From: Arachis hypogaea | Lineage: Eukaryota; Streptophyta; Magnoliopsida; Fabales; Fabaceae | DNA: 64,000 nt | Direction of reading: 5' to 3' | NCBI RefSeq assembly: GCF_003086295.3 | Contig: NC_092046.1 | Location: 109,409,363 to 109,473,362 of the forward strand | In this document: positions 1,778 to 55,636 of the stretch, one piece after another | How positions within the stretch are numbered: position 1 is the stretch's first letter | How the letters are laid out: every line of letters starts with the position of its first letter | Position numbers and translations under genes: made by a program | The notes under the pieces: model-generated | Database searches by the model: none | What the model was told of the DNA's origin: nothing | What the model saw: only the letters and a program-made list of their open reading frames with translations

Positions 1778-1779
1778 GC

Positions 1780-22057: not shown

Positions 22058-22094
22058 AGCATGAGGACATGCTTGGTTTAAGTGTGGGGATATT
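22058..22094 (+). other. AGGA-loop hairpin and PPT of B
   Basis: AGCATG (22058-22063), loop AGGA, CATGCT (22068-22073), then AAGTGTGGGGATAT running into the LTR at 22095. Confidence 0.8.
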
Positions 22095-22412
22095 TGATAA
22101 ACCCCGATTTTGTGGTTTATCTTGTGCTTATTTTGGGGGATTTTATCACCTTTTCTCACATTTATTCAATGAAATAGCATGGTTTTGTAATTCTCCCTTG
22201 ATTTGTGCTTAAATGTGAAAACATGCTTTTTAGGCCCTAAAATAGCCAATTTTAATTCACTTTAATTCCATTCGATGCCTTGATATGTTTGTTGAGTGAT
22301 TTCAGGTTAATAAGGCAAGTATTGGATGGAAGAAGTGAGGAGAAAAGCATGCAAAGTGGGAGAACTCATGAAGAAATGAAGGAACCGTAGAGCTGTCAAG
22401 CCCGACCTCCTG
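22095..22412 (+). repeat. Truncated 3' LTR of B
   Basis: Only the first 318 bp are left, closely matching 3418-3735 of the 5' LTR. It stops after CCCGACCTCCTG and the F0 UTR starts at once with CATACATATGATTGAGG. Confidence 0.85.
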
Positions 22413-23434
22413 CATACATATGATTGAGGCCATCATTTGTTATTAGCTCACTTATCCTAAACAGCCTACATTCCAATTACCTCTGTTTGCCACTTTGAGC
22501 CTTTTAATCCTCATTTGTTCTATATTTTACCACATCACTAGCCTTAAGCAGAAAAATAATTAATTACCTTATGTGAATCTTTGGTTAGCTTAAGATAGTA
22601 TGTTAACTAAGTATGGGAAATTGTGGGAACCTGGGTTAATGGGAATGTATTATGTTTCTACTTTATTTGAATATTGGAAATTTGGGTGCATACTCATGTG
22701 AGACCAGAAAAACCATGTGCATTCGATATGTTATGTTTATTTTTATGTTTAAAAAAATATATTAAATAAATAAATAGTACAATATAAATAAATAAATAAA
22801 TAGGGGATAAAATTACCCCAATGTTAAGTTTAATAAAAAGATCAATGCATATGTGGTGAAATCAAAGAAAATTTGGTACATGAGTATGTGATGCAAAAGT
22901 GGGAATTTTGGGTAGCTATGCATGATTTTAGAATTACATAGAGTGTGTGTGTGTGTGTTAGGTGAGAGCTTAGGTTAGTCAAAGATTCATATTATAGCTC
23001 ACTTGGCCATACATATATCCTCACTCTTACCTTAGCCCCATTACAACTTTGAAAAGACCTCATGATGTTTGCATTGGTATACTAAATATTTGTTGATTGG
23101 TTATATGAAGAACAAAGTTTTAAAAAGCATGGCTAAAGAAGAGTAGAGTGATTAACCCTAGACACTTGAGCGATTAGAGTGCATATACACTACCAGCGAG
23201 GGTTCAATGCTTGATTCTATGTTCCCTGCTTTCATGAGCTATCTTCTTACAAGTTTACTTGTCTTTTATTGTGTGATTTGAATTAGTGGAATCTGATTTA
23301 TGGTTGTCTTGGAGAACTTGTTTACTCTTAACCAAGTAGATAGAAACATCTTAGCATATAGTTGCATTTGCATACATAGGTTGCATCTCATGAGTCTTAC
23401 TTTCCCCCATTCACTCCTTTTATCTCCTTGAGCT
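22413..23434 (+). other. 3' untranslated region of F0, right part
   Basis: No coding frame. Continues the UTR broken at 3417. Contains AT-rich runs near 22750-22800 and a short (GT)n at about 22942-22958. Confidence 0.65.
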
Positions 23435-23472
23435 TAGCATGAGGACATGCTAGTGTTTAAGTGTGGGAAGAT
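23435..23472 (+). other. AGGA-loop hairpin and PPT at the F0 3' LTR
   Basis: TAGCATG (23435-23441), loop AGGA, CATGCTA (23446-23452), then AAGTGTGGGAAGAT up to the LTR start at 23473. Confidence 0.8.
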
Positions 23473-24982
23473 TGATAAACCACTATTTTATGGTTTATCT
23501 TGTGCTCAATCGAGTGGTTTTTATCAAGTCTTTGCACACTTATTCATACAATTTGCATAATTTTACAATTCCTTCCCAATTTTGTTCTATGGTTGAAAAC
23601 TTACTTCCTAAACCTTTAAATTGTGTATTTTAATTCCCCTTTATACCATTCGATGCCGTGATCTGTGTGTTAAGTGTTTTCAGGCTATATAGGGATGGAA
23701 TGACTTATAGGATGGAGAGGAAGCTTGCAAAAATGGAAGGAGCACAAGAAATAAAGGAGATAACCAGCGAGGAGCGACGCGCACGCATGGCTCACACGTG
23801 CGCGTGATTTGGAGATTCGCACAGCGACGCGTGCGCGTACCTGACGCCTTCGCGTGACAAGCGAGATTGCAGATCGACGCGTATGCGTGACTAACGTGTA
23901 CGCGTGACTAACGTGTACGCGTGACTAACGCGTACGTGTGACATGTGCCACGTGCAGAAAACGCAGAAGACATTGGGGGCAATTTTGGGCTGAGTTTGGA
24001 CCCAGTTTTCGGCCCAGAAACGCAGACTAGAGCCAGGGGACAAGCAGAGACTCAACATACATTCTCATTTGCATAGTTTTTAGTTTTGGTTTTTGAATCT
24101 TAGAGAGAGACACTACTTCCTCTAGGTTTTCTTCACATTCATAGTTTTAGAGTTTATTGCTTTTGATTTGGATATTGAGAAGAGTTACTACCTCCGTTGA
24201 AGTCTCCATTATTCTAGTTTGTTTCCTTATTCTTTTAGTCTTTCAATCACCTATTAACCCTGTTCAGATATGGATGTTTATGATTTTGGGATTTATTAAT
24301 GCAAAGAACTAATTTTAGCTTTAATTAATTTTCAGTTATTATTTTATTTAATTTATCATGTCTTCTTTCTATTCCCTTTATATGCCTGTGAAAGTGGTAT
24401 TCATGTCAATGGAGTAGACTCCTAACTTGACTTGGGAGTTGATTAAAAGGAGACCCTTGAGTTGGAATACTCAAGTGTAATTAGGAATTAGAAGTTGTTG
24501 GCTGGCTCTCTAGTCACTAACGCTAATCCTTCCATAGGAGAGGATTAGGACTTGTGAATTGGAGCCGGTTAAGTTACTTGACTTTCCTTTATTCGGTAAA
24601 GGATAACTAAGTAGAAGCAAAAATCTCTTACCATTACACTTGGGGAAATTTAACAAGGATAGAACTTCCAATTAATCTTCTCCCGGTCAAGACTTTTATT
24701 TTAATTATATAAATTCTCTTGCTAATTTTCATTGCTTTAATTTACAATCATTTATTTTTCTGTTCTCCAACTCTAAAAATTCTCAAAAAATTCTCGTCTA
24801 ATAAAATAGCATTCTTTTATCAACTCGTTGGGAGATGACCTGGGATTTCTACTCCCAGTATTTTATTTCCAATTTGTGACAATTCTTTTTAAATTGATAA
24901 GCAGAATTTTTGTCAGTTAAGAACTGTACTTGCAACGCTATTTTCACTATAAATTCTTAATCGGCAATCTTTCGCCACGTCA
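23473..24982 (+). repeat. LTR (F0 type), shared by two internal regions
   Basis: TGATAAACCACTATTTTATG to CGCCACGTCA, 1510 bp. It has a PPT on its left and a primer site on its right, so it is a 3' LTR for the left region and a 5' LTR for the right one. A CpG palindrome cluster (ACGCGTACGCGT type) lies at about 23771-23945. The GAGCTACAGAGG block of B, C and D is absent. Confidence 0.85.
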
Positions 24983-24987
24983 ATTTT

Positions 24988-25005
24988 TGGCGCCGTTGCC
25001 GGGGA
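24988..25005 (+). other. Primer binding site (tRNA-Asp)
   Basis: TGGCGCCGTTGCCGGGGA, a perfect match to the complement of the tRNA-Asp 3' end. Confidence 0.9.
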
Positions 25006-25114
25006 GTTGCAATAGTGTGCTAAATTATTGGTTGGTGTAAATATTTTTTTTATTTTACATATTTGCATATTTTATTTTATTTTATTACCATGAGTTGTAT
25101 GTTTCTTTCATTGA

Positions 25115-25334
25115 ATGACGCGTTCACTGCCTAATCCGAGCTTAGCCGCGTTTGATCCTGAAATTGAAAGAACTATTTCACGTATTAGGCGAGCTCGGCA
25201 TCGGTTAGCCTCTGAGGGTAGTGAAGTGGTTACTACCAATTTACCAGTATTATCTGAGAGCAAATCTGAAGCGCCATTTAAGGAAGAAACAAGCTCCTCT
25301 TCTACTGATTATATTGATTCACGTGCAGGTAAAA
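25115..25334 (+). pseudogene. gag N-terminal stub, fused to a 3' UTR
   Basis: ATG 25115 opens about 73 codons (FDPEIERTISRIRRARHRLA, then an acidic Ser/Glu-rich stretch). The start resembles the N-termini of Athila-type gag proteins I remember (DPEIERT followed by Arg-rich text). At about 25332-25336 the coding text ends abruptly and turns into GGTTGCATGTTAGTTAGAA, which in C (31571) and B (20650) belongs to the 3' UTR. All of gag-pol between these points is lost. The small frame reads 17 bases into the UTR before stopping. Confidence 0.6.
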
Positions 25335-26734
25335 GGTTGCATGTTAGTTAGAATCTGTACATATTTTACCACTTCTTTCTTATTAGGACTACTTGGTTAG
25401 GATGATAGTTTTTTTTCCAAGAAAACTGTTTTTAGGGCACCCTAGCAATTTGAAAAAAAAAATTTGTTGAAGTTTCATGAAGAATTTATTTTGGAACATG
25501 GTTTTTGAGCTAAGAACACAAGCATGTGAGTTTTGAACCCAATTGTGTGTTTACATCATATAACCACTTATTTCTATTCTTGTGTACATTATTCTGTTTC
25601 TATGATTGCAATCCTTGATTTGTTTGATTCTTTATGTCTATTATTCCATGTATACATGCACTTATATGATTGAGGCCATCATTTCATTTAGCTCACTTAC
25701 CCAAATAGCCTACCTTTCATCAACCATCGTTAGCCAACTTTGAGCCTATTTTAACCCCTTTATTCTTAATTTTAGCACATTACAAGCTTTAAAGCAAAAA
25801 AACAATAAAGGAACTTTATTTTGATCTTTTATTAGCTTAGGCTAGTGAGTGTGTATCATTTAAGTGTGGGGAAACTTGGGACATTGGTTGAGGTAAAAGT
25901 ATGTTTTGTATTTTCATTGAAGATCTTGGGAATTGGGTACATACTCATACATTAAATATGTAAAACCATATGCATTGATATGTTTGTATGTACTTTGTTG
26001 AAAAAAATGTGAAAAAATGTAGAAAAAGAAATAGAAAAATAAAAAAAAACAAACAAATATATAGAAAAAAGAAATGTAATAAAAAGGGGACAAAAATGCC
26101 CCAAAGTAAAGTAATAATAACAATGCATATGGAATGTGAATTAAAGAGAATGCATGAGTATGTGAAAAAGTGGGAATCATGGGTAGCTAGGTATGTATTA
26201 GAATTGTATAGGTTGTTATATGTGTTTGATGAGAGTTTAGGTTATTCAAAGATTTAAATTTCAAGCTAACTTGACCATATGCATCCCTACCTTTATCCTA
26301 GCCCCATTACAACCTATGAATAAGACCTCATGATAAATGTATGCATGCATTGAATAATTGTTGATTGTGAGATGAAAAAAAAATCATGGAAAGCATGATT
26401 AGAAGAGAATTGAGTGATCAACCCTGTACACTTGAGCGACTAGAGAGGATACACTTCTGGTGAGGGTTCGATGCTCAATTCCTTGTTCCCGGCTTTCATG
26501 AGCTTTCTTCTTGCAAGTCTATTTGAACTTCATTTTTGTATTTGAATTGGTAGGATTTATGAATCATCATACTATGTTAGCCCTACTTGTTCATATATGT
26601 TCTTGGAGATTGATTTACTTTTAACTAAGTAGGTAGAATCATTTTGCCTTTAGTTGCATGCATGAAGATAGGTTTATATAGTTTCTTTGCATTGAATAAA
26701 TTTTCATACCCCCTTTTCTAGTCTTTCTTGATTT
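25335..26734 (+). other. C-type 3' untranslated region (left copy)
   Basis: Highly similar to about 31571-32970, with the same A-rich run and GGGGACAAAAATGCCCC inverted repeat. No coding frame. Confidence 0.75.
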
Positions 26735-26771
26735 AGCATGAGGACATGCTTGGTTTAAGTGTGGGGAGATT
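26735..26771 (+). other. AGGA-loop hairpin and PPT before the C 5' LTR
   Basis: AGCATG (26735-26740), loop AGGA, CATGCT (26745-26750), AAGTGTGGGGAGATT (26757-26771). A PPT directly upstream of a 5' LTR marks the recombinant structure. Confidence 0.8.
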
Positions 26772-28314
26772 TGATAAACTCCACTTTTGTGGTTTATCTT
26801 GTGCTGAATTTAGGAGATTTTATCAACTTTTCCCACATTTCACTAAAATAGCATGGTTTTGTAAATTCTCCTTAAATTGTGCATAAGAGTGAAAACATGC
26901 TTTTTAGACCTAAAAATTGATAAATTTCATTCACTTTAATTCCATTCGATGCCTTGATATGTTTGTTAAGTGATTTCAGGTTTAGAAGGAAAAGATTGGA
27001 TTCAAGGAATGAAGAAAAAGCATGCAAAAATGGAGAACTCATGAAGAAATGAAAGAATTGCTAAGCTGTCAATCCTGACCTCTTCGTACTTCATCGATCA
27101 TAACTTGAGCTACAGAGGTCCAATTGAGGCGGATCTAGTTGCGTTGGAAAGCTAACTTCCAGGGCTTCAAAATGATATAAAATTTGCCATGGTTGCTTTG
27201 CACGTGACCCGTATGCATCACCCATGCATGTGCGTTGCAGAATCAGTATGGGCTATTTTAGGAGAAAATGTGGCCAGCGATTTCTAGCTCATTTTGGGCC
27301 CAATCCAACTCATTTATGATGCTTTTGAACCCAAGGATTGCAGGGGGATGAACCAAGTAGTCATAGTGGAGTTTTGATCATGTTTTAGATGTAGGTTTCT
27401 AGAGAGAGGGGCTCTCTCCTCTCTCGAGATTTTAGGGTTTTCATCTCCATTTCTTCTTAGATCTAGATTTCAGTCTTCCTTGAATTTAGTTTTCCTTTAC
27501 ATCTTTTATTGTTCTAGCACTTTAGTTCATTCTATTTCTCTTATTAATTTTCTTTATTTTGTCAATTTTTGTTTATGAACTCTTTTGTTGATTTTCATTT
27601 TCTTTTAATGCAATTTATGATTTCCATGCCTTTTTATAATTTGTTTAGTTTCCTATTGATCTCTTGCCTTTGTAGTTATAGCTTTCTTTAATTCTTACAA
27701 TTTATGATGTTTATTTTTATTGTCCTCTATGTGTTTGATAAAATATCTCTTTTAGTTATGAGCTAGATTCTTCTCCTCTTGGCTTGAGTTGAGTAATTGG
27801 AGACACTTGAGTTATCAAACTCTCTTGTTGATTGATAATTGGAAGTTGCAAGTTGATTTGAATGCCACTAAAGCTAGTCTTTCCTTAGGATTTGACTAGG
27901 ACTTATGGATTCAAGTTGATTGTATCCACTTGACTTTCCTTCATAGTTAGAGGTTAACTAAGTGGGAGCAATGGACAATTCTTGTCACAATTGATGATGA
28001 TAATGAGGATAGGATTTCTAATTCTCATTCCTTGCCAAGAGCTTTCTTAGTTATTAGCTTATTTCTCTTGTTATTTACATTCCTTGTCTCTTATTATAAA
28101 AACCCCAAAACATTCCTTCATAGCCACTAACAAAACCCTTCATTGTAATTTCTAGGGAGATGACCCGAGGTTTAAATACTTCGGTTATTTTTATTGGGGT
28201 TTGTACTTGTGATAAACGAATTTTTGATTGAGGATTGTTTGTTGGTTTAGAACTATTCTTACAACGTAACAATTAATTTTGTGAAATTCTATACCGACAA
28301 AATACCATTCATCA
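26772..28314 (+). repeat. LTR, 5' side of element C
   Basis: TGATAAACTCCAC to ATACCATTCATCA, 1543 bp, followed by a primer site. It holds the conserved GAGCTACAGAGG block (about 27098-27180) and a GA/CT palindrome near 27399-27426. Confidence 0.85.
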
Positions 28315-28317
28315 AAA

Positions 28318-28335
28318 TGGTGCTGTTTCCGGGGA
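28318..28335 (+). other. Primer binding site of C (degraded)
   Basis: TGGTGCTGTTTCCGGGGA, three differences from the tRNA-Asp complement. Confidence 0.7.
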
Positions 28336-28484
28336 ATTGCAAAGGTGTTACATTATTGGCTATTGTGAATATGTTCATATTGTGAATATCTTGCTTTTTG
28401 GTTAATTCTTGGTTTTGCTAGTATTTAGGAGTTTACTTTCTCTTTGCCTTTTTGAGATTTTTGTTTTGATTTCCTCTTTTCCAT

Positions 28485-30016
28485 TTAAATTTTCATCCTT
28501 GTGGTTTTGGATATGGTTATGACTATGTTGTAGGTAATGAAAACTTTAATGATGACTCACAATATGGGAGAGATGAATTCTTGAGAAGGGAGCCATATCC
28601 ATAAGAGCAATCACCATGGCAACCTCCTCAACCAAGCTACTATGATTGTAACCCCTCCTATGATGCATATCATTCCAATGGATATGATGGTTCTTATCAT
28701 GATTATGCCACTCAACCACCATCATTCCATGCACCTTACTCTCAACATAGTCCTCAAATACCACCATTCCAACCACCATACTCCCAATCCACATCCTATT
28801 TCTATCAATCACCTCCACATAATCGTAATCCATATCCTCCATATGCACACACTTATAACCATTATGAACAAGCAACCATGGAACCACCACCACTTCAACA
28901 TCATTACCCTCACAATCCTTCTTTTTCCTCCAACCAAGCCTCTATGGATGATACACTTGATATCATTTCTCAAGAGCAAGAAGAGTTCCAAACCGCACTC
29001 ACCGGTTTCACCTCCGCCTTCCAAGAGCTTATATCCCGTATACCTCTATCTTATACCAACAACCAAAGCACCTTCTAACCTCCAAGCTTTAATGCATCTC
29101 CTCTTCAACCGCATGAAAAATGTGAGAAATCAATCGAGGAGAGGAGCATGAAGGAGATTTTGGATTCTCAACTTGAGAACAAGGAAATGGACTGTGTTTT
29201 GCAACAAGTAGAAGGGAGGAAGATTGTTGAAGATGAAGAAGTGGAAGAAAATCTAGGGGAGGTTGAACAAGAAGAAAGTTTCATCATTGAAGACAACTCT
29301 ACACCAAGTGACAATGGTGACCTTGTTGAAGCCTCTTCCATGAGATGTGAGACCGATGTTGAGAAGGAATGTGCACAACCTCCAATGCATATTTTGATTA
29401 ATGAGAAAGAGTTGGAAAAAGTTAGCGAACAAGAGGAAATTGAAGAAAGTTGTCAAAAGATGGAAGTCGTTAAGGAAGAACCAAAGGAAGTGGAGCCTAC
29501 AATGTCAAGACCATTGGATATCTTCCTTACTAAGTTACCATCCAAATTACAAGTTGAACAGGTAACCATCTCATTCTTTAATTTCCTTGGCCCATATTAA
29601 TATGCATTGTTAGAAACAGATGGTCAACTTAGAGCTTTGTGTGGGTTAGTAAGTAAAAAGAGTTGGGTGTTGGTTGGAAACAAGAATCAAGGTGTATAGT
29701 GGAAGGAAGCTCAAATTTTGGGATTCATGGTTGGAGTGAAGCTCAATTGAAGGGATCTAGGATGATGATTAGGAGTTACAAGTAGAATTCAATCAGTTTG
29801 TCAACCAATTAGAAGCATGAAGTTCAAGAAGAAAGAGGGTTGACAAACAAAGTATAGGACCCCGGAATATACATAGATAATCATCAACTTTGGGGCCTTG
29901 GTACTTGCTTGAGATCTCTTGGTAGCTTGACGCGCTTAGTTTGGGATCCCTGAGGCTATTGGAAATGCAAGCATTGGTGGGGATTTAAGGAAGAGTTCAA
30001 GCATAAGCCATCCTAG
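28485..30016 (+). pseudogene. ORF1 of element C, decayed
   Basis: Homologous to ORF1 of B and D. The start codon is lost (TTA at 28485 where B and D have ATG), followed by GFGYGYDYVVGNENF. The frame holds to 29600 with stops at 28602-28604, 29076-29078 and 29598-29600; beyond that it shifts. Recognisable parts: the Pro/Tyr/His-rich section (28640-28910), a short helical stretch (EEFQTALTGFTSAFQELIS), the acidic section, ECAQPPMHILINEKE, then LETDGQLRALCG after 29600 and the closing YWKCKHWW and EFKHKP near 29955-30010. This is the most damaged of the three ORF1 copies, and it shows which parts the family shares. No enzyme motif is present. Confidence 0.75.
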
Positions 30017-30065
30017 TAAGGACCCCACCAAACGTCCAACTTAAGGACTTAAAATAAAAGTGCTA

Positions 30066-30083
30066 GGTGGGAGACACCCCACC
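30066..30083 (+). other. Post-ORF1 RNA hairpin (C copy)
   Basis: GGTGGG, loop AGACAC, CCCACC; perfect 6-bp stem 49 bases after ORF1. Confidence 0.7.
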
Positions 30084-30716: not shown

Positions 30717-30766
<50 letters not shown>

Positions 30767-31322: not shown

Positions 31323-31472
31323 ATGACCACCGAAAGAAAAAGGAAAGGCTTTTTAAATGGGGCAACAAACAAGTTCACTCGAACAATCTTTTGAAGGAGC
31401 TCATCAGTTGTAGCGACTCGTCCACCTTGCTCTTCTTTGCATCTACCGAGGACGGTGCAATCTTAAAGTGTG
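31323..31472 (+). pseudogene. ORF2 stub of element C
   Basis: ATG 31323 after AGG gives MTTERKRKGF, then a stop within 30 codons. Compared with B, a small indel near 31343 shifts the frame. In the B frame the text keeps NKQVHSNNLLKELISCSDSS-like and FFASTEDGAI sections. Same short product as in B and D, here broken. Confidence 0.5.
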
Positions 31473-31480
31473 GGGAGGTT
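31445..31480 (+). other. Decayed AGGA-loop hairpin plus internal PPT-like tract (C)
   Basis: ACCG, loop AGGA (31449-31452), CGGT, one further T-G wobble, then a C-C mismatch. AAGTGTGGGGAGGTT at 31466-31480. Confidence 0.55.
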
Positions 31481-32970: not shown

Positions 32971-33007
32971 AGCATGAGGACATGCTTGGTTTAAGTGTGG
33001 AGAGATT
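32971..33007 (+). other. AGGA-loop hairpin and PPT of C
   Basis: AGCATG (32971-32976), loop AGGA, CATGCT (32981-32986), AAGTGTGGAGAGATT (32993-33007). Confidence 0.8.
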
Positions 33008-37535: not shown

Positions 37536-37540
37536 TTTAG

Positions 37541-37758: not shown

Positions 37759-38928
37759 ATGGCTACTCGCGGATGAGGTCGTACATGTACACATGGAGAA
37801 ACTAAGAATGACCGACCGGTCGACAACCATGCCGAGTTCATGGCGTCAATGACCAATTTGGAAAATACCATGCAAGCCAACGCTGTTGCGACCATGCAAG
37901 CCATGGAAAAGGATGGGTCAACCGGCTGGGAATGGTAATGGAAACGAAAACGGAAATGGAAATGGAGAAGGAGACAGTAATAACTTGGGTGGTGCTCTGA
38001 TGACTTTAGCTTTGTTTCTCAAGGTTCACCGCCAAATTTTTGCAAAACGACAAACTCCACTGAAGCAGACAATTAGTTTAGAGCTATGGAGTCCGCACTA
38101 CAAACTCAGCATGTCCCGGCTAACCAATACGTAGAGTTTGCGGCCTATCAAATGATGGGAGTGGCACAACATTGGTGGCAAGGAAAGTTCCAGTTGCTGT
38201 GACTTTCGAATGCTGAAATTCCTTGGGATACGTTTCAAACAGCATTTTATAGGAAGTATTTCCTGGAGTCAGTGAGAGAAGCTAAAGAGTTAGAGCTTAT
38301 GTAGCTGAAGCAAGGCTCGTTATCTATGGCCGATTACACTAGTTGGTTCAAAGAGCTCTGTAGGTTCTCTAGGGTATGTCAAGGTGCCCCAGAGTCCTTT
38401 GAGCATTGGAAGTGCATCAAGTATCAAGGAGGTTAGAGGGATACCATTATGACTGCTGTGGCTCCTTTGGAGATCCAAGTGTTTTCCGAGCTTGTGAACA
38501 AGGCGAGGGTTATGGAGGAGTGTGCGAAGGAAGTGGCATTAGCAAGAGATACTCGTGGGGAAAGCAACAACTGTGGGTGTGAAAAGTACTTTCAACCAAG
38601 AGCTCAGAACTTTAAGAAGGGAGGACATGTACCTCAAGGTCAAGGAAACATTAGGAGACCCATTTTTTATCAGTATCACCCGGTGAGAGGAAGATGTGAT
38701 TGCTTTAATTGCAGATTGCCTGGTCACATGGCAAGAGATTGTACTCATGGGAGGAACTCGAATGCGGGAAGAAATCAACACCAAGGAAGAGTATTCGCTG
38801 TGAACACCAATAATGCTGCTAAGGCGGATCCTTTGATGAGTGGTAAGTGTGTAATTGGTGACAAAGCTTTGGCTATATGGTATGATTTTCTAACCCGACA
38901 TTTATTCGTAACTTATTGTGGTGGACTC
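37759..38928 (+). pseudogene. gag of element E, with zinc knuckle
   Basis: ATG 37759 (MATRG, then TGA). Several stops and shifts follow, but the gag domain reads as EFAAYQMMGVAQHWWQGKF, AFYRKYFLESVREAKELEL, LKQGSLSMADYTSWFKELCR. From 38449 a clean 160-codon frame gives LVNKARVMEECAKEV, a Gly/Gln/Arg-rich stretch, and a CCHC knuckle CFNCRLPGHMARDC at about 38701-38742. The start of protease (GKCVIGDKALA) follows, then sequence is lost and the solo LTR J begins. Gag style and primer site fit Tekay/Del-type chromoviruses, a different clade from A to D. Confidence 0.85.
38924..38928 (+). repeat. Target site duplication of J, left copy
   Basis: GACTC, identical to 41272-41276. Confidence 0.85.
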
Positions 38929-41271: not shown

Positions 41272-41276
41272 GACTC
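41272..41276 (+). repeat. Target site duplication of J, right copy
   Basis: GACTC. Confidence 0.85.
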
Positions 41277-43432: not shown

Positions 43433-43470
43433 AAATTTTGAGGGCAAAATTTTCTATTTGGTGGGAAGAA
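43433..43470 (+). other. Tetraloop hairpin and PPT of E
   Basis: AAATTTTG (43433-43440), loop AGGG, CAAAATTT (43445-43452), then GGTGGGAAGAA (43460-43470) against the LTR start TGTAAGAACTGCG. Confidence 0.8.
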
Positions 43471-46671: not shown

Positions 46672-48134
46672 CAAGGCGACTCGTAACCAAAGTTTAGATT
46701 AGAGATGTCATAATTTAAAACCAATTTAAACCGGGTGTAGAATCTCGGGTCTTCTTCCCAAGGAGCTAGTGACCAATAGTGCACAATTTCAGTTGTGATA
46801 ATCAAAGGGTTTTAAATAAAGAAATGAACAATTAAAGGAATAAAAGAACAATCAAAATTTCAATTAATGAACTAATAAAGGAATTAAAGAACTAGCTACG
46901 TAATATGAACAAGTAAGATGTAAAAGTGATTGATGTGTGTGTATGTAATTCAAAGCATAAATGGCATCTTAGCTTGGGATGAGCTAGGAGATCATTTCCT
47001 TGTTGTAACCACAACTATAACAATTATGATGGATTAATCTCACTTAGTTTACCCTTAACATCGAAGGAGAGGTCAAGTGAGCATAATTGTTCTTAATCCA
47101 TAAATCCTAGCTTACTTACTAATTACCTTAGTAAAAAGCTAGCGTTAGCGGAAATAAAAACAATTAACAATCTAAGAATTATCACTAAATGTTGGACATT
47201 CCAACTCTAGTACCCATATGCTCATTTTCCCCAAGCCAAAAGGTAGAAATTTATCTCATAATCAAAGTTGACATTTCCACAAATACTTGGTGGACATAAA
47301 CATAAAACATGACAAAATTGAGAAAATGTTTGAAACTATGAGCAATAAATGATCAAAAGCAACAATAGCAACTCAACCAAGCATATAATAATCATCAATC
47401 ATCAAATTCATCAACAAGGAATCAAAATTGCAAAAAGTATATATATTAACAATATGTCTTTAACTACAAGAAAGAGTACCAAAATTGTCGCAATAAAAGA
47501 GAGCAATTAAGAAATACTTACAATGGAGGCAAGCAAAAATCCAAGATCAAAAATGGAAATATCACTTGGAATATAAACCCTAATGAAAATCCTAAGAGAG
47601 TTGAGAGAAAACTTAGAGAAAACTAAAACCTAAAGCCTCCTAAAACTATCTAACACTACTCCTAATGATATGCTATGTTTCCTCAAGTGTTGCCCCCTCC
47701 ATATGAGCTCTAGGCCATCAGATTTGGGCCTTCAAAGCCTTTCAAACGCGAGTCACGTGACTTTTAAATGAAGGCACGCGCTGGTACCTATGCGTACGCA
47801 CACTTGACCGAATCTCAGGTTGTGCGCACACTTCGCAAAGCTTTTTTCCTTTGTTTTCTTCATGTTTCCTCCCTTTTCCATCCTTCTCTTCCATTCTTAC
47901 CTAGCCATTCCTACCTATTACATCTAAAATCACTCACCAAAAATATCAAGGTATCGAATGGAATGCAAATGGAATAAAATTGATTAAATTAAGAACAAAA
48001 GAGCATGTTTTCGTAATCAAGCATAATTTGGGAGGAAAACTCAAAAGCATGCTATTTAAAGGAATAAATGTAGGTTTGCATGATGAAATCCACTCAATTC
48101 CGACAAAAAATTACCATTAAATATGGATTCATCA
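46672..48134 (-). repeat. 3' LTR of minus-strand element G
   Basis: Read on the minus strand it starts TGATGAATCCAT at 48134, right after a PPT. Near its end is the text GACCCGAGATTCTACACC, similar to the tails of the B/D LTRs. A putative palindromic GCGTACGCAC motif is at about 47790. The far end at 46672 is approximate. Confidence 0.75.
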
Positions 48135-48172
48135 ATTCCCCCACACTTAAACACTAGCATGTCCTCATGCTA
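48135..48172 (-). other. AGGA-loop hairpin and PPT of G
   Basis: Minus strand: TAGCATG, loop AGGA, CATGCTA (48172 down to 48155), then AAGTGTGGGGGAAT ending at 48135. Confidence 0.8.
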
Positions 48173-49740
48173 ATCTCAATGAAAGGAGAAAGGTTAAAGG
48201 GCAATGACTTATTTAATGTACTAACTACATGCATGCAACTAAGCAAAATATTGACTACCTATTTCTACACTATGGTTTCCTATTGAGTTTTGCAAAAGAA
48301 ACAAACAAGAGATCTCCAATTAATTCAAGATAGATCATTAGGGCCAAGGTAAGGAATCAATGCAATATGATCAACATCCAAAGATTGATTTAAGGTTTTC
48401 AAAAATCAATTCCACAACTTGTGAAAAACACAATGTAAAATATGGAAGCATAAAATTGAGCAATCGAACCCCTCACCGGATGTGTATACACTCTAACCGC
48501 TCAGTGTGTGGGGCTTAATCACTTAATGCTCCTTTAATAATGTTTTTCTAGGATTTGCTAATCATCTAACAATCAACAAATATTGATGCATGAATACAAA
48601 TATCATGAGGTCTTTGGAGGGTGGTAATGGGGCTAAGGTAAGGGTAGGATTAATATAGTTAAGTGGACTAGTAAATTGGTTCTTTGATTAGCTCAAGCAA
48701 CCCACCTAATCCTATATCATCCTATTTTACACATAAGAAAAACACCCTAATTCCCATTTATCTATTTTCTCACATTCGCTCATGCATTTTCTTTCCAAGA
48801 TACATACATATGCATTCTTTATTTAACTCTTTATTTCAAATGGTATTATGCCCAAGATTGATGATGATTTTTTTTTTCAAATCAAAATTTCTTTGTATTT
48901 GTCAACAAAAAAAATTGCATATATTTTAAATGATGAATGCATGAGTGTTCACCCATTTTTCAAATTTTTTTCTTAATGGAAACCGAATGTAATTTCATCA
49001 CCAATGATTCCCAATAAATTCCCCCCTCCCCCCACACTTGAGTAACACACACTACTCAACCCAAGCTAATCAAAGAAGCAATCCAGGGACATTAATGATT
49101 TTTTGCTTTAGGGAGAATGATGTGCTTAAAATCAAAACAAAAAGGGAAATTAAAAGGCTCAAAAGTGGGTTACAATGGTACTTGTAAGGGTTGGCTATAT
49201 AGGCTAAGTGAGTTAAATTTCAAAAAAAGGACTCAATCATACTAAATGTATTTAAAACATCAAATATAGGACATAAAGATTCAAGCAAATCTAAGATCGC
49301 AATCATAAAGGAGTATAACACACAAGAACAAATTTTTGTTGTTGAAAATGTGCAACCACACAATTAAAGCTCAAATCTCACTAGGTGTTTTGTTCTAGCT
49401 CTTTTCTATGTTCCCTAAGAAGTATATTTCAACCAAGTTGAAAAATAAGTTCTCAAATCTAATTAATGGAATGCCCTAAGAGATTTCTTGAAAATTTCTT
49501 GTTTTCACCAAACTTATTTCCTATTCCATGCAACATGCAAATGCAAATATTTACTGCCATAGAGCTACAATTAACTAAGATATATGTATAGACAATCTAA
49601 GTAAAGTGCAATAAAATTGAAATTCTAATCAATATTCACAAAAGACCTAATTACTAAAGACTAGAAAGTATTGCAAAGTATTAAGAAAGAGAATTTTACC
49701 TCCCCAAAGTTACGGATCCTCCCCCACACTTAATTGTTGC
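48173..49740 (-). other. 3' untranslated region of minus-strand element G
   Basis: No coding frame. The features run in reverse order to those in B and D, ending near 49720 with the minus-strand AAGTGTGGGGGAGG tract and GTGCAA, half of the internal hairpin that D split. Confidence 0.65.
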
Positions 49741-49745
49741 ACGGT
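49741..49745 (+). repeat. Target site duplication of D, left copy
   Basis: ACGGT; the right copy is ATGGT (57099-57103), one C-to-T difference at a CpG. Confidence 0.75.
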
Positions 49746-51208
49746 TGATGCACCACTATTTTGTGGTATATTTTGTACTTAATCGAGTGGATTTTATCCA
49801 CTATTCTCACACTTGTTAATTGAATTCGCATGTTTTACATTTTCCTTCCTAATTCTGTGCTTTGATTGAAAACATGCTTCTTTGGCCTTAAATTACTAAT
49901 TTTAATTCTCTCTTATTATCATTCGATGCCATGATATGTGTGTTAAGTGTTTTCAGAGATTACAGGACAAGAATGACTTAGAGGATGGAATGGAAGCATG
50001 CAAAAGTGGAAGGAATACAAGAAGCTGAAGGAACTACAAAGCTGTCAGCCCTGATCTCTTTGCACTCAATCGATCATAACTTGAGCTACAGAGGTCTAAA
50101 TGAGGTGGTTCTAGTTACGTTGGAAAGCTAACATCCGGGGGCTTCAAAATGATATATAATTTTTCATAGTGGCCATACAGCTAGGTGATGCGCACGTACA
50201 CTTGACGCACACATGCACATTGGCGAAAAGTCCATCGGCGCGCACGTGCACCTGGCACGTACGCGCGACATGCATGACGTACTGCAACTGTAGAAATCGC
50301 TGGGGGTGATTTCTGGGCTGTTTTTGACCAATTTTTCGGCCCAAAAAACACATATTAGAGGCTACAGAGTGGGAGAATCAACTCATTCATCGAGACACCA
50401 TTCATTATTCACAATTTAGGTTTTAGATGTAGTTTCTAGAGAGAGAGGCTCTCTCCTCTCTCTAGGTTTTAGGATTTCTCCTTCTCAGTTCCAGGTTTAA
50501 TGTTCCTTTAATTTAGTTTCTCTTCTACTTTTATTTGTTCTAGCATTCTAGTTTATTTATTTTCCCAATTTGGTTTATGAACTCCATGTTAGATTTGATA
50601 TCTTTATTTAATGAAATTTGAGGCATTTCATATTTATGATTTTAATTCAGCTTTTTACATTCTTAGCTTGAATTGATTAATTGGAGATGCTTGAGTTATC
50701 AAACTCCTTTGTTGATTGTTAATTGAAAGTTGCTAATCGACTTGAATTCCACTGAATCTAGTCTTTCCTTGGGAGTTGACTTGGACCTGAGGATTCATAT
50801 TGATTTATCCACTTGACCTTCCTTCATAGTTAGAGGATAACTAAGTGGGAGCAACGAACAATTCTCATCACAATTGATAAGGATAACTAGGATAGGACTT
50901 CCAATTTTTATACCTTGTCAAGAGTTTTCTTTGTTATTAATTTGATTTCTTGCAATTTACTTTTCTTATTCCTAATTCAAAATCCCAAAAATATACTATC
51001 TCATAACCAATAATAACTACACCTCCCAGCAATTTCTTGAGAGACGACCCGAGGTTTAAATACTTCAGTTATTAATTGTATTAGGGGTTTGTTACTTGTG
51101 ACAACAAAATTTTTGTTTGTACAAAAGGATTTTCTGTTAGTTTAGAAACTATACTTGCAACTAGAATATATTGTGAATTCTTTACCAGCAAAAAAAATCT
51201 ATTTGTCA
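49746..51208 (+). repeat. 5' LTR of D
   Basis: TGATGCACCACTATTTTGTG to ATCTATTTGTCA. Conserved block at about 50074-50160, CpG palindromes 50185-50275, GA/CT palindrome 50436-50465. Confidence 0.93.
50436..50465 (+). repeat. GA/CT palindrome in LTR D
   Basis: CTAGAGAGAG (50436-50445) and CTCTCTCTAG (50456-50465) form a 10-bp inverted repeat. Matching palindromes occur in the B, C, D and solo LTRs (about 4051, 27399, 33497, 45273, 56309). Confidence 0.8.
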
Positions 51209-51211
51209 AAA

Positions 51212-51229
51212 TGGCGCCGTTGCTGGGGA
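51212..51229 (+). other. Primer binding site of D (tRNA-Asp)
   Basis: TGGCGCCGTTGCTGGGGA, one C-to-T difference from the tRNA-Asp complement. Confidence 0.9.
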
Positions 51230-51318
51230 ATTGCAAACGTGTGCCTTATTTTTGGTTATTGTAAATATTTACTTTTTGCTTGTTTATTTGTTTTTGTTTT
51301 TAATTTTTATTAGTTACT

Positions 51319-53134
51319 ATGAATTCTCACCCCTGTCGCTATGAGTTTGGTTCCAATTATGTTGTAGGGAATGGAAGCTATAATGAGAACATGCATCAAG
51401 GTTAGAACAATCAAAGATGGGAGGAGTCACAAGGATTTCATCAACCCTCTTGGCAACAATCCCCTCCAATGCGCTATAACCAACAACCATTCTATGATGC
51501 ATACCAAGACAATAGTTATGGTGGACCTCTTCGTGACAACCAACCTCCACCAAATTACTATGGTCAAGAGCCATTCCAAGATGCGTACCAAGATGATGAA
51601 TATGGTGGACCCTCTTATAGTTACCAACAAGCCCACCATATGCTTATGAACCACCTCCTCAACATAACTTTGAACCCCACACTCACAAGCCCATTTCCAC
51701 CATTCACCTCCATATGACCCTAATCCTTATCCATCACACCAACCACCATACGAGCCTTATGAACCATACATAGAACCACCTCAATTCCAAAACAATTGCT
51801 CTCCTCCATCTTCCTATGACGAGATGCTTCAATCTCTTGCACAAGGACAAAAGGCCATGGAAAGCACACTTAACTCCACCCAAAACGGTCTGACCTCTGT
51901 TGTACAAGCTCTTGCCTCACAGATTGGATCAATGAATACCTCCAACAATCAACCCTCAAGCTCTAGTGCACCCCCTTTTCAACCCCATAATGATCTCTCC
52001 ATCCCATCACCACCCTCCATGGAAGAGCACCCACATCCATCAATCCAAGAACAACATGATCCCAATGATGCTACTGACCCAGAACAAGAGAGAAATAATC
52101 ATCTTAGGGACGCAATAGATCGGTTACACGCAGTTTTATTTCCAGAGGAGCAAGAGGAGGCCCAAAATGTGGAGGTAGGAGAGACCCTTGAAGATGAAGG
52201 AATAGTTGAAAGGAGTTGTCATGGAAAGGAAATCATCAAGGAGGAGTACGATTTTATACTAAAACAACTGGATAAAGCAGTAATTATTGAAGAGGAAGAA
52301 ATGGTTGCAGACTTAGGAGATGCGAAACCTCCATGGGAAAGTCCAGTCATAGAGCCTCCTACCAAGGTGTTTGATGTTGATGTTGAGGAGGGTGTACAAC
52401 CTCCAAGGCATATCATGGTTGAAGACTGTGCAGAGGTTGATCAAGAGATGGATATTAAAGAAGAAGAAGCACAATCTCCCATGCCCTTGGTAAGTAATGA
52501 AGAAGAGAATGAATTGGAAGAAAGCTACCAAGAGGAAGAGGTTGAAATTGAAGAAGCTTGCAAAGAGGTGGAAGTTGTCAAGCAAGAGCTCAAGGAAATG
52601 GAGCTGGAAATCACCTTGCCAAAGTTATTGGAGACTTTGCCCCTAAAGCCATCACCATCCATTCCATCATTCAAGTGGATAAATCTTTTATCTCTAAGCT
52701 TAATTAGCCCACTTGAATATGCTTTGCTTGAGACGGATGGGCAACTTAGAGCTCTTTGTGGCTATAAGAGTAAGAAGGAGATGGTTAGTGGTAAGAGTTG
52801 TCATGCAAGGTTCAATATGGTTGCACGCTCCAAGTTGAAGTGCAAGGCTTGGTGTAGAGCTCGATTAAATGGGTCTAGGAGGTTGTTTGGATGTCTCAGT
52901 GAAAATTCCAATTGCTCACCACCCAAGTGGAAAAATGATGATCAACAAGAAGACGGGAGCAAAAGCAAGGTTTGGGACCCTGGAATTCATTCTAACAATC
53001 AACACTCCCAGAGCCATGTCACTTGCTTTAACTAGCTCGAAGGCTTTATGTGCCTAGTTTGGGACCCCGGAGGCTATTGGAATTGCAAACATTGGTGGAG
53101 ATTTCTGGATGAGTTCAAGCACAAGCCACCATGA
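51319..53134 (+). pseudogene. ORF1 of element D: Pro/Tyr-rich then acidic protein
   Basis: It starts MNSHPCRYEFGSNYVVGNGS at ATG 51319. TAG at 51403-51405 replaces a TGG kept in B. Frameshifts lie between about 51630 and 51820. From 51824 the frame is open for 403 codons to TAG 53033-53035, and the same frame then continues to TGA 53132-53134 (LVWDPGGYWNCKHWWRFLDE, ending FKHKPP), so that TAG is probably also a nonsense change. Sections: Tyr/Pro/Gln-rich (QDNSYGGPLRDNQPPPNYYG), a helical segment (MLQSLAQGQKAMESTLNS), a long Glu-rich region with VQPPRHIMVED, then the shared module FKWINLLSLSL, LETDGQLRALCG, GSRRLFGCL. No gag, protease, RT or integrase motif. Function not known; it occupies the gag-pol position. 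Confidence 0.8.
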
Positions 53135-53183
53135 CAAGGAGCTCACCAAATATCCAACTTAAGGACATAAAAGCAAAGTGCTA

Positions 53184-53201
53184 GGTGGGAGACAACCCAC
53201 C
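53184..53201 (+). other. Post-ORF1 RNA hairpin (D copy)
   Basis: GGTGGG, loop AGACAA, CCCACC; perfect 6-bp stem, 49 bases after the ORF1 stop. Confidence 0.75.
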
Positions 53202-54084
53202 ATGGTATAATCGTTCCTCTTTATTCTTAGTCTTATTTTATTTTATTTTTACTAGTGTTCATTCATAATTTCTGCATAATCATCTGCATTCTGCATTTTG
53301 CACTCTGCATAAAAAAAGAAGGGGATCGACGCGCCAGCACCTAGTGCACATCCACATCCTTTGTGGATGCGAAATGGGTTAGGTTAAACAGAGAGTGGCG
53401 TGGGAGCTGGGCGAGAAATGTGCCTTAGGCACAATCCCGCCCACGTGCAAGCACATTGTACGCATGCGCGCCGTTTCCACTTTTGGCGACCCACGCGTCC
53501 GCGTGGTTTGGAAAATCGGCGGAAAACCTCGTCTTACCCGAGCGTTATGCTGGACTGGGGCTGGTACTGTGCTCAAGGCACAAATTCACCGACGTGTACG
53601 CGTCCATGACGCGTGCGCGTCCTTTTCCACACATGGCCACCTACGTGTCTGCGCACTGTGTGCCTCCGTGCCCTTTCTTTTCTCTCAATGCACGCGTACA
53701 CGTACCGTACGCGTGCGCGTCGATTGCGCTGCCAGCTTTCAAATTTCTCTCCTCCCTTCTCCTCCTTATGCTCTTTCTTTCTCTTTTGTTTATTCCATTT
53801 GCATACTCGCATTCATGGCATTTTAACTTTGTTGTTTCCTCTCCTTTTCTCTTTATATCTCTTATTTTCACATTGGTGTTAAATTTCCTTACTCATCTGC
53901 TGCATATTTCCTACATTGTAATGGGTGCTTCTTAACTTGTTTGCTATCTAGTTGACACACCCTGTGCTTCTATTATTTTCTCACTTACATGTTGTAGCTA
54001 CCATGTAGTTGAGCACCTTACTATTTGGCATTAGCCTACCTATGTTCTATTTCTTTTTATATCTTTGCTTGTGGGTTCTTTTCC
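53202..54084 (+). other. Spacer of element D with CpG palindromes
   Basis: About 53325-53735 holds GACGCGTGCGCGTCC, GTACACGTACCGTACGCGTG and similar motifs. The remainder is pyrimidine-rich. Long overlapping frames on both strands across the motif cluster are not taken as genes. Confidence 0.7.
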
Positions 54085-54105
54085 TTCCTTTTTCTCTTCT
54101 TTTAG
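54085..54105 (+). promoter_or_regulatory. Putative 3' splice site before ORF2 (D)
   Basis: A pyrimidine tract ends in TTTTAG at 54100-54105, one base before ATG 54107. Confidence 0.5.
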
Positions 54106-54106
54106 G

Positions 54107-54250
54107 ATGGCCACCAAGAGGGAAAAGGAAAACTTTTCAACCTGGAGCAATAAACAAGTCTGCGGCACAATCTTTGGAGAAAAAGCATCAGTTGGAGCCA
54201 CCCGCCCACTTGCGCATCTTTGCATGCACCGAGGACAGTGCAATCTTTAA
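54107..54250 (+). CDS. ORF2 stub of element D (47 aa)
   Basis: ATG 54107 to TAA 54248-54250, 47 residues. The basic start MATKREKENF matches the ORF2 starts of B and C and the head of the F0 env-position gene. Downstream the frame differs from B: text like LRIFACTEDSAI, which ends the B product, lies in another frame here, so a frameshift has occurred and the printed C-terminus (HLCMHRGQCNL) is probably not the original one. It ends within the internal hairpin and purine tract. It may be a remnant rather than a working gene; its value is as a positional marker of the lost env-position gene. Confidence 0.4.
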   Translation: MATKREKENFSTWSNKQVCGTIFGEKASVGATRPLAHLCMHRGQCNL

Positions 54251-54263
54251 GTGTGGGGAGGTC
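54225..54263 (+). other. AGGA-loop hairpin plus internal PPT-like tract (D)
   Basis: TGCACCG (54225-54231), loop AGGA, CAGTGCA with one mismatch (G to A at a former CpG), then AAGTGTGGGGAGGTC (54249-54263). Confidence 0.7.
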
Positions 54264-55596
54264 GATACCGATCTCCGTGGGTTAGTTACTCTCTTTTCAA
54301 CACCAATGTTTAGTTTTCGTTGTTACTGAGTTGTTGCATTGCATAGTAGATTGCATGTGTAGTTAATTACTTGCATGTATGTACTACTTGGTTGAAGTAA
54401 TATTTTCTTTTTCAAGAAACTAATTTGAAATAATACAGCATTTCACTAATTTGAATTAAAATTTTTGTTAAATTTGTTTGAAGAAATTTATTTTTGGAAC
54501 ATGGTTCTAGAGCTCGAACACACAAAACCAGTGAGATTTTGAGCCTAATTGATTGGTTGCATCTTATCAACTAATATTTTATTTTTGGTGTGTGTTGTTT
54601 TCTCTAAAATTATGATCTTTGTCTTGCTTAATTCTATATTTCCATTATTTGATGTATGCATACACTTACATGATTGAGGCCTTATTTCACCAAGCTTACA
54701 TACCCATATGGCCTTACCTTTCATTATCCCTTGCAAACCAATTTTGAGCCTATTTTACCCCTTTGTTCTTTACTTTAGCACATCATTAACTCTAAGCAGA
54801 AAACAATAATGTCCTTAATTTGAATCCTTGGTTAGCTTGGACTAGTGAGAGTGCTCACGAATTAAGTGTGGGGAAATTGGGATTGAAAACATTTGGTTTG
54901 AGAATTGGGTGTTGTATATTCTTGAGAAAATGTGAAAAAGAATTTTGAGGACATGTTTATGCGTTCCATACCTTAATTATATGCAGTGAAAAAAAAAACA
55001 TAGAACAAAAGAAAAAAAATAATAATAATAAAATACAAACAAAAAAAAGAGAAAAAGAAAAGAAAAAGAGCAAACAATAAAAAGGGGACAAAATGCCCCA
55101 AAGTAAATAATATCAATGCATATGAGTTGTACTCAAATTCGGATGCATGAATATGTGGAAAACATAGTTAATGAGTAGTTAGATTTTATATTCTGATTAC
55201 ATGGATTGTCTTAAGTTAGGTGGGAAGTTTAGGTTAATTAAGGATTCAGATTTTTGTTGATTGTTAGATGAAGAGCAAGCCTTAGAAAGCAAGATTAGTA
55301 GAGAATTGAGAGATCGAACCTTAAACACCTAAGCGATTAGAGTGCATACAATTTCAGTGAGGGTTCGATACGCAATTCTTTGTTCCCGGCTTTCACGAGC
55401 TAATTTCTTTTGCAAGTTTACTTGTACCTTATTTTATGATTTGAATTAGTGAGATCTAGTTCATATTTCTTCTTGAAGGATTTGTTTACTTTTAACCAAG
55501 TAGGTAGAAACATTTTGCATGTAGTTGCATTCATATAGATAGGTTGCATTTCGTACCTTCTACCATTCCTCTTCACTCTTATAGTTTCTCTTGAGC
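54264..55596 (+). other. 3' untranslated region of D
   Basis: No coding frame. A-rich run 54985-55085 and the GGGGACAAAATGCCCC inverted repeat near 55084. Confidence 0.7.
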
Positions 55597-55636
55597 TTAG
55601 CATGAGGACATGCTAATGTTTAAGTGTGGGGAGATT
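55597..55636 (+). other. AGGA-loop hairpin and PPT of D
   Basis: TTAGCATG (55597-55604), loop AGGA, CATGCTAA (55609-55616): 8-bp perfect stem. PPT AAGTGTGGGGAGATT (55622-55636). Confidence 0.85.

What the first reader, a model, noticed from the sequence alone, without database searches (positions are those of the whole stretch)
22058..55636. A covarying stem-loop with an AGGA-like tetraloop precedes every terminal polypurine tract
Seen directly at eight terminal PPTs. AGCATG-AGGA-CATGCT (22058, 26735, 32971); TAGCATG-AGGA-CATGCTA (23435 and minus 48172); TTAGCATG-AGGA-CATGCTAA (55597); TTGCTTG-AGGA-CAAGCAA (18055); CTTGCTTG-GGGA-CAAGCAAG (minus 59084); and in the distant chromovirus E, AAATTTTG-AGGG-CAAAATTT (43433). 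Stem sequences differ between families but pairing is kept in all, while the loop and the short distance to the PPT (6-11 bases) are nearly constant. Compensatory change in unrelated stems argues for a selected RNA or DNA structure. Possible roles: protecting the PPT from RNase H, positioning RT or integrase, or marking the 3' end for packaging or polyadenylation. I do not know of a description.
Basis: partly seen in the sequence, partly recalled or inferred. Interest (0 to 1): 0.87.

Follow-up and report, generated by a model that had tools for sequence, protein, structure and literature searches.

The report
Covarying hairpin before retrotransposon polypurine tracts
In a peanut-like genome, several families of plant LTR retrotransposons carry a small hairpin whose sequence changes but whose pairing is kept, at nearly the same short distance before the purine stretch that primes second-strand DNA synthesis, which suggests an overlooked structural signal in how these elements copy themselves.

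Summary
In detail: all nine reported hairpins are present; 13 perfect stems (6 bp or more) with an RGGR loop occur in the window against 0.5 expected. Three further intact units and two decayed ones lie at internal PPTs, so the hairpin belongs to the PPT, not to the 3' end. In the window's own genome (2.56 Gb, probably peanut), of 100 sites chosen by PPT sequence alone 61 have all seven inner pairs, all with RGGR loops; leader-type PPT-like copies have none (0 of 15). Among 27 distinct hairpins the covariation score is 0.83 against 0.21 shuffled, 0 of 500. The hairpin lies 17-20 nt before the LTR in 18 of 18 terminal units, in Athila-like and chromovirus-like elements. It is not universal: a gag-only Ty3-like family with a similar PPT lacks it (14 of 40 sites). 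Best explanation: a structural part of the plus-strand primer, probably a ruler that stalls reverse transcriptase so that RNase H meets the PPT/U3 junction; the mechanism is inferred. Ten paper searches found no description; the closest is the Ty1/copia inverted repeat with the PPT in its loop. One genome only.

The parts
22058..22094 (+). terminal unit B1: hairpin AGCATG-AGGA-CATGCT (22058-22073), PPT core at 22080, LTR starts 22095
23435..23472 (+). terminal unit B2: hairpin TAGCATG-AGGA-CATGCTA (23435-23452), PPT core 23459, LTR starts 23473
26735..26771 (+). terminal unit B3: hairpin AGCATG-AGGA-CATGCT, PPT core 26757, LTR starts 26772
32971..33007 (+). terminal unit B4: hairpin AGCATG-AGGA-CATGCT, PPT core 32993, LTR starts 33008
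55597..55636 (+). terminal unit B5: hairpin TTAGCATG-AGGA-CATGCTAA (55597-55616), PPT core 55622, LTR starts 55637
48135..48172 (-). terminal unit B6: hairpin TAGCATG-AGGA-CATGCTA (48155-48172), PPT core 48148, LTR starts 48134 reading down
18055..18091 (+). terminal unit A1: hairpin TTGCTTG-AGGA-CAAGCAA (18055-18072), PPT core 18079, LTR starts 18092
59048..59084 (-). terminal unit A2: hairpin CTTGCTTG-GGGA-CAAGCAAG (59065-59084), PPT core 59060, LTR starts 59047 reading down
43433..43470 (+). terminal unit E (chromovirus-like): hairpin AAATTTTG-AGGG-CAAAATTT (43433-43452), PPT TTTGGTGGGAAGAA, LTR starts 43471 (start inferred from TG)
15819..15853 (+). internal unit of element A1, between the pol ORF (11286-14573) and the PF20167 ORF (15944-17011): TTTGCTTG-AGGA-CAAGCAAA, PPT core 15844
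20519..20555 (+). internal unit of element B1: TGCACCG-AGGA-CGGTGCA, PPT core 20544
3002..3039 (+). internal unit, downstream of a PF20167 ORF (1636-2538): TGGCACGG-AGGA-CCGTGCCA, PPT core 3028
31441..31476 (+). decayed internal unit of B4: ATCTACCG-AGGA-CGGTGCAA (one U-G, one C-C in the inner seven pairs), PPT core 31466
54224..54260 (+). decayed internal unit of B5: ATGCACCG-AGGA-CAGTGCAA (one C-A in the inner seven pairs), PPT core 54249
11286..14573 (+). pol ORF of element A1 (protease, RT, RNase H, integrase, in the Ty3/gypsy order); the only place in the window matched by the five RT proteins used
38437..38928 (+). gag/protease remnant of element E (zinc knuckle; weak RVP_2); all 36 relatives found are from Arachis

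Best explanation
The hairpin is a cis-acting structure of the retrotransposon RNA that forms one unit with the polypurine tract and helps make the plus-strand primer. SHOWN: base pairing is kept while the stem sequence changes; the loop is nearly always RGGR closed by G-C (61 of 61 fully paired sites; 16 of 17 loops and 14 of 17 closing pairs); the loop ends 12-14 nt before the PPT core; the hairpin base lies 17-20 nt before the LTR; the same unit occurs at internal PPTs, and leader-type PPT-like copies lack it. INFERRED: during minus-strand synthesis RT copies the PPT and then meets the hairpin from its 3' side and stalls. Its RNase H site, which trails the polymerase site by roughly 13-18 bp, then sits at or just inside the PPT/U3 junction and cuts there (or the hairpin base sets the RNA 5' end from which RNase H measures). 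The hairpin would thus be a ruler for the primer's 3' end. At internal PPTs it would do the same for a second plus-strand start.
For: Covariation: 27 distinct hairpins, score 0.829 against 0.208 shuffled, 0 of 500; slid controls 0.10-0.16; these were selected for G[AG]GG[AG]C and PPT spacing, not for pairing of the other seven pairs. Of 427 inner pairs in 61 units so selected, 415 are Watson-Crick (the 61 closing pairs are G-C by selection). G[AG]GG[AG]C next to a PPT: 24 of 30 have a stem of 6 or more; away from a PPT: 1 of 164. In 37 prokaryote/viral chance matches to GAGGAC plus PPT: 0 of 37 reach 5 bp. 100 sites chosen by PPT sequence: 61 fully paired. Of those 100, A-family sites sorted by LTR start: 30 of 34; leader-type copies: 0 of 15. 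Spacing 17-20 nt in 18 of 18 terminal units; loop-to-PPT 13 nt in 17 of 17 fully paired chromovirus-type sites (PPT-to-LTR was fixed by the pattern there). Published: Ty3 RT active sites about 13 bp apart (PMC5371799, passages); RNA 5'-end-directed RNase H window 13-19 nt and pausing-induced RNase H cleavage for HIV-1 RT (PMC3185654, passages). Genome-wide for one stem pair: T-A 23,891, C-G 13,785, C-A mismatch 654 (T-G count not answered).
Against: No biochemical test. A gag-only Ty3-like family with nearly the same PPT/LTR start has no such hairpin (14 of 40 sites), so not every Ty3-type element in this genome needs it. Predicted folds of about 130 nt often pair the PPT itself with other sequence, and in 4 of 14 window units the mean inner-pair probability is below 0.5. 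Stems of 6-8 bp may stall RT only briefly. The wobble test for RNA on the sense strand is mixed: G-U against A-C 6:2, 6:3 (overlapping sites), 4:6 in chromovirus-type units. Stem conservation exceeds both flanks clearly only in the A terminal family. At control offsets 25 of 400 best-of-three windows are also fully paired.
Confidence: 0.45

Rival explanations
1. Insulator: the hairpin, together with a second hairpin that often starts right at the LTR, keeps the PPT as a defined single-stranded stretch between two stems and so makes it accessible and sharply bounded; no stall and no ruler.
For: Downstream stems of 5 bp or more in 62% of 48 distinct downstream sequences against 22% in shuffles, with changing stems (GATAAACC/GGTTTATC, GATGC/GCATC, GATGAC/GTCATC, AAAAGC/GCTTTT).
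Against: No such stem at the LTR start in the three chromovirus-like units and in several others; the predicted unpaired probability of the PPT is low, 0.10-0.43.
Confidence: 0.2
2. Gag binding: the purine loop with exposed GG is a nucleocapsid (zinc knuckle) site for packaging or annealing, placed near the 3' end and repeated inside.
For: In sites not selected for the loop it is RGGR in 61 of 61 and 16 of 17 fully paired cases; E has a zinc knuckle; B elements, where no RT was matched, keep it. That retroviral nucleocapsids bind G-rich loops is recalled, not from a call.
Against: It gives no reason for a fixed 12-14 nt distance to a PPT or for absence at leader-type PPT-like copies, where packaging signals would be expected.
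Confidence: 0.17
3. Dyad DNA element or 3'-end/polyadenylation signal acting in the host nucleus.
For: Symmetric at the DNA level, next to the LTR.
Against: Stem sequences share no motif across families, and internal copies away from the 3' end have it.
Confidence: 0.05
4. No selection: one inherited palindrome that drifted, with covariation produced by descent and chance.
For: Related copies inflate covariation counts; all data are from one genome.
Against: At least ten different fully paired inner stems; homologous units differ by matched changes, T-A against C-G at pair -2 and T-A against A-T at pair -8 in A internal units, A-T against T-A at pair -7 in B terminal units; C-A mismatch is 654 against 37,676 matched for one pair.
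Confidence: 0.04

Closest known systems
[quoted passage not shown] abstract and passages seen)
   Same: A plant LTR-retrotransposon structure tied to the PPT, proposed by its authors to help RNase H form the correct primer.
   Different: There the PPT lies in the loop, the right arm is inside the 3' LTR, Sirevirus arms average 28 bp, and upstream PPTs lack it. Here both arms lie upstream of the PPT, the loop is 4 nt, the stem 6-9 bp, it is in Ty3/gypsy-type elements, and internal PPTs have it.
Extra PPT in the linkers of Athila4 and Calypso (cited in PMC2829016; the original, PMC155253, is not held)
   Same: An internal PPT between pol and the 3' LTR in Athila-type elements.
   Different: No hairpin is mentioned in the passages I saw; the original was not seen.
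U-box/T-box upstream of PPTs of retroviruses and Ty1, and TCTT before fission-yeast PPTs (PMC10085805, passages)
   Same: A feature just 5' of the PPT that matters for plus-strand priming.
   Different: A linear T-rich sequence, not a covarying stem. Here pyrimidine-rich sequence lies upstream of the hairpin in A and B units, not in E.
PPT of yeast Ty3 (PMC11381356 and PMC5371799, passages)
   Same: Same superfamily; accurate RNase H cutting at the PPT/U3 junction.
   Different: [quoted passage not shown] the Ty3 PPT lies in a base-paired region of lower probability.

Membership tests
Plus-strand primer (PPT) region of a Ty3/gypsy LTR retrotransposon | Purine-rich tract directly before the 3' LTR | tested here: met
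   17-20 nt between the hairpin and the LTR TG hold the PPT in 18 of 18 terminal units; in the window most LTR starts are supported by repeat copies, that of E is inferred from TG
Plus-strand primer (PPT) region of a Ty3/gypsy LTR retrotransposon | Element encodes protease-RT-RNase H-integrase in the Ty3/gypsy order | tested here: met
   Element A1 only; B elements have no match to the five RT proteins used; E shows only a gag/protease remnant
Plus-strand primer (PPT) region of a Ty3/gypsy LTR retrotransposon | The tract really primes plus-strand DNA | not testable with these tools
   needs biochemistry
Sirevirus/Ty1-copia PPT inverted repeat | PPT lies in the loop between the arms, right arm inside the 3' LTR | tested here: not met
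   Both arms lie upstream of the PPT
Described Rfam RNA family | Match at the family's gathering score | tested here: not met
   The only match in the window is snoR71 at 63142-63249, elsewhere
AGNN-tetraloop hairpins (RNase III substrates; recalled) | Loop AGNN | tested here: not met
   12 of 61 loops are GGGA
Chromovirus (for element E) | Integrase with chromodomain | tested here: inconclusive
   The pol region of E is decayed; of five open pieces from E scanned, four gave no clear Pfam match and one a zinc knuckle and a weak RVP_2; various gag relatives carry PF03732, PF00098 or PF08284

The most novel reading that the evidence does not exclude
An old structural element of plant Ty3/gypsy retrotransposons, shared by Athila-like and chromovirus-like lineages: a hairpin ruler with free stem sequence before each functional PPT, terminal and internal, that positions reverse transcriptase to cut the plus-strand primer end.
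Probability: 0.33. Interest if true: 0.82.

Novelty: new variant of a known kind. Interest (0 to 1): 0.66.

Why it matters
How RT chooses the PPT/U3 junction, and why the PPT sequence alone is not enough (stated for Ty1 in PMC2829016), is an old question. A covarying hairpin at fixed distance, in tens of thousands of copies (26,398 exact copies of one stem; 23,891 and 13,785 of two others), gives a directly testable model with natural variants. It would also give annotation tools a marker for 3' ends and internal PPTs.

Tried and rejected
Rejected: chance; a mere companion of the PPT motif (leader-type and tandem PPT-like copies lack it); a known RNA family; AGNN loops; a 3'-end mark (internal copies). 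Led nowhere: plant elements in viral contigs (no relatives); genome contigs (30 stretches, none with the hairpin, used with the 7 as a null); a literature search for the motif letters (116 papers, 30 listed, none of those about retrotransposons by title); a further PPT-like site in the middle of B elements, where I saw no constant hairpin (by eye).

Results against my reading: 14 of 40 chromovirus-type PPT sites lack the hairpin. There, one fully paired site has a loop other than RGGR and three have a G-U closing pair. At control offsets 20-32 nt, 25 of 1,300 single windows, or 25 of 400 best-of-three, are also fully paired with G-U allowed, against 61 of 100 at the expected place. Wobble direction is mixed. 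Stem conservation is not uniformly above the flanks. The invariant GG and closing G-C in the 27- and 61-unit sets follow from how they were selected. The planned comparison T-G against C-A for one pair was not completed because the T-G count did not complete.
Full report
WHERE THE WINDOW IS. The window lies in a 2.557-Gb genome of 440 contigs, at G000:C11:109409363-109473362. All 36 protein relatives found for element E's gag piece are named from Arachis species. Cultivated peanut is published as 2.54 Gb with 20 pseudomolecules (PMC7188672, start of abstract in the listing). I take it as Arachis hypogaea; this is inference. The window is a nest of LTR retrotransposons. Element A1 has repeats at 7633 and 18092 and a pol ORF at 11286-14573 in the Ty3/gypsy order; I call it Athila-like by its layout (inference). 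Several B elements (LTR starts 3418, 22095, 23473, 26772, 33008, 49746, 55637 and, minus, 48134) show no match to five RT proteins. Element E (3' LTR from 43471) is called chromovirus-like; its pol is decayed and I could not confirm a chromodomain.

THE OBSERVATION. All nine reported hairpins are where stated. The window holds 13 perfect stems of 6 bp or more with a loop RGGR, against 0.52 expected; 12 of 13 stand right before a PPT-like sequence. Beyond the finding there are intact units at 3002, 15819 and 20519 and decayed ones at 31441 and 54224. All five lie at internal PPT-like sites; 15819 lies between pol and a PF20167 ORF. On the 14 window units the stem is paired in 92.9% of cells against 60.3% shuffled, covariation 0.815 against 0.195, 0 of 500 shuffles as high; seven of eight pairs show changes on both sides, against 5.3 in shuffles.

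BEYOND THE WINDOW. In 20 arbitrary 10-kb stretches of the same genome I found 13 such hairpins, 12 before a PPT, with new stems. Pooling these with the window, G[AG]GG[AG]C within 22 nt of a PPT core has a Watson-Crick stem of 6 or more in 24 of 30 cases, and elsewhere in 1 of 164. In 28 of the 30 the loop ends 12-14 nt before the PPT core; the other two (L053, L064 at 9441) I take as chance sites and left out of the spacing table. Of the 28, 18 are terminal, with 17-20 nt from the 8-bp arm to the LTR TG, and 10 internal. As an outside null, 37 prokaryote or viral sequences that hold GAGGAC and the PPT by chance have stems of 1-2, once 4.

PPT-ANCHORED SAMPLE. The pattern TTTAAGTKTGGKG occurs 189,598 times in the genome, against 8,147 for the reversed pattern. 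I fetched all 100 listed places, all on contig C1, so they were chosen without regard to a hairpin. 61 of 100 have all seven inner pairs (G-U allowed) at the expected place, all 61 with RGGR loops and a closing G-C. Of the other 39, nine are decayed copies of the unit by eye (six of these are among the eight sites with six pairs); the remaining 30 are leader-type copies or other sequence. At control offsets 20-32 nt, 25 of 400 best-of-three windows are fully paired. Sorted by the sequence after the PPT instead: A terminal family 30 of 34 paired, leader-type copies (named so by likeness to window 61271, which follows a 5' LTR) 0 of 15, A internal 11 of 17 and B terminal 5 of 8 at one fixed offset, which misses copies with one base more or less; 26 sites fell in no class. 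Across 27 distinct hairpins from 61 units (window, random stretches and the first 40 anchored sites; selected for G[AG]GG[AG]C and PPT spacing, not for stem pairing) the covariation score is 0.829 against 0.208, 0 of 500, and 415 of 427 inner pairs are Watson-Crick. Homologous units differ by matched changes: pair -2 T-A against C-G and pair -8 T-A against A-T in A internal units, pair -7 A-T against T-A in B terminal units, G-C against A-T at pair -7 in B-type internal units. Genome-wide for pair -2 of the TTGCTYG stem: T-A 23,891, C-G 13,785, C-A 654; the T-G count did not complete. The tool calls counts of large families lower bounds.

SECOND LINEAGE, AND A LINEAGE WITHOUT IT. AAGGTGGGDAGAATGTAA occurs 1,056 times, reversed control 0. 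Of the first 40 of 100 listed places, 17 have all seven pairs, 7 six and 2 five. All 17 have loop-to-PPT 13 nt; the arm-to-LTR distance of 18 nt follows, because the pattern fixes PPT-to-LTR. Of the 17, 16 have an RGGR loop and 14 a closing G-C. The other 14 sites form one family with no hairpin there. In two of three members examined, gag ORFs (PF03732, PF19259) lie upstream; no RT match was found with five Athila-type RT queries. So the feature is shared by two unlike lineages at the same distances, but not by every Ty3-like element.

WHAT IT MOST LIKELY DOES. It goes with the PPT, not with the 3' end: internal PPTs have it, leader-type PPT-like copies do not. Its stem sequence is free and its distance is fixed. 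It stands on the side that RT reaches just after copying the PPT. Ty3 RT's active sites are about 13 bp apart (PMC5371799); RNA 5'-end-directed RNase H cutting by HIV-1 RT falls 13-19 nt from the end, and pausing raises RNase H cutting (PMC3185654). A hairpin base 17-20 nt before the LTR TG, hence about 14-18 nt before a primer end that lies 2-3 nt upstream of TG (assumed by analogy), fits a ruler. This is inference; a gag-binding role and an insulating role remain open. A second hairpin at or near the LTR start is common in A and B units (stem of 5 bp or more in 62% of 48 downstream sequences, against 22% in shuffles) but was not seen at the LTR start of the three chromovirus-like units.

NOVELTY. 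Internal PPTs in Athila-type elements are known (PMC2829016 cites Athila4 and Calypso). A PPT-flanking inverted repeat is known in Ty1/copia, with a different layout. Ten searches of the open library (listings only, except for the papers named next) and the passages seen in PMC11963269, PMC1142308, PMC6317226, PMC2829016, PMC3185511, PMC11381356, PMC10085805 and PMC5371799 gave no description of this hairpin. The library lacks most subscription papers, including the Athila4/Calypso paper. I recall similar short palindromes at 3' ends of elements in other plants; that is a lead, not a test.

LIMITS. One genome only; PPT-anchored samples come from the first places listed (C1, and C1-C2), so families are uneven; covariation counts treat distinct rows as equal and are not tree-aware; the genome tool answered only part of the time.

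Noticed in passing
window 22095-22120, 23473-23500, 55637-55665, 59047-59030 (minus); L068, L093 and others: A second stem-loop often starts at the first bases of the LTR (GATAAACC/GGTTTATC, GATGC/GCATC, GATGAC/GTCATC; decayed at 55637), so the PPT sits between two hairpins; not seen there in the three chromovirus-like units.
   Followed up: partly
window 9212, 9281, 9362 and 61271, 61461; L078, L086 and others: PPT-like AAGTTTGGTGT copies repeat in what appears to be the 5' leader of A-type elements, without the RGGR hairpin; purpose unknown.
   Followed up: partly
L050 6562-6628; L057 7337-7403: Three PPT-like cores at 33-bp spacing inside A-type elements, without RGGR hairpins.
   Followed up: no
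window 25862, 54864, 49039 (minus): B elements have a third PPT-like AAGTGTGGGG between the internal and terminal units, with no constant hairpin seen.
   Followed up: partly
window 20544, 31466, 54249, 3028: After the internal B PPT, GGAGGTC can pair with a downstream CTCC or GACC stretch, so this PPT may itself be partly in a hairpin.
   Followed up: no
window 49731-49746 and about 57100: Element B5 appears to be inserted inside the internal hairpin unit of the minus-strand element B6, with imperfect 5-bp flanks (by eye).
   Followed up: partly
L175, L176, L179 and 11 more; L206-L208: A Ty3-like family (gag ORFs in two of three members examined, no RT match) whose PPT/LTR start resembles the chromovirus-like one but which lacks the hairpin.
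   Followed up: partly
the 40 bases before each hairpin, e.g. window 22016-22055, 18014-18053, 15779-15818: Pyrimidine fraction 0.57-0.88 in the 13 A and B units, 0.35 in E; 24% of all 40-base windows reach 0.6 and 7% reach 0.7.
   Followed up: partly
window 63142-63249 (minus): Rfam match to plant snoRNA snoR71, 43.5 bits against a cut-off of 40.
   Followed up: no
window 1636-2538 and 15944-17011: PF20167 ('putative plant transposon protein') ORFs, one before and one after an internal PPT unit.
   Followed up: no
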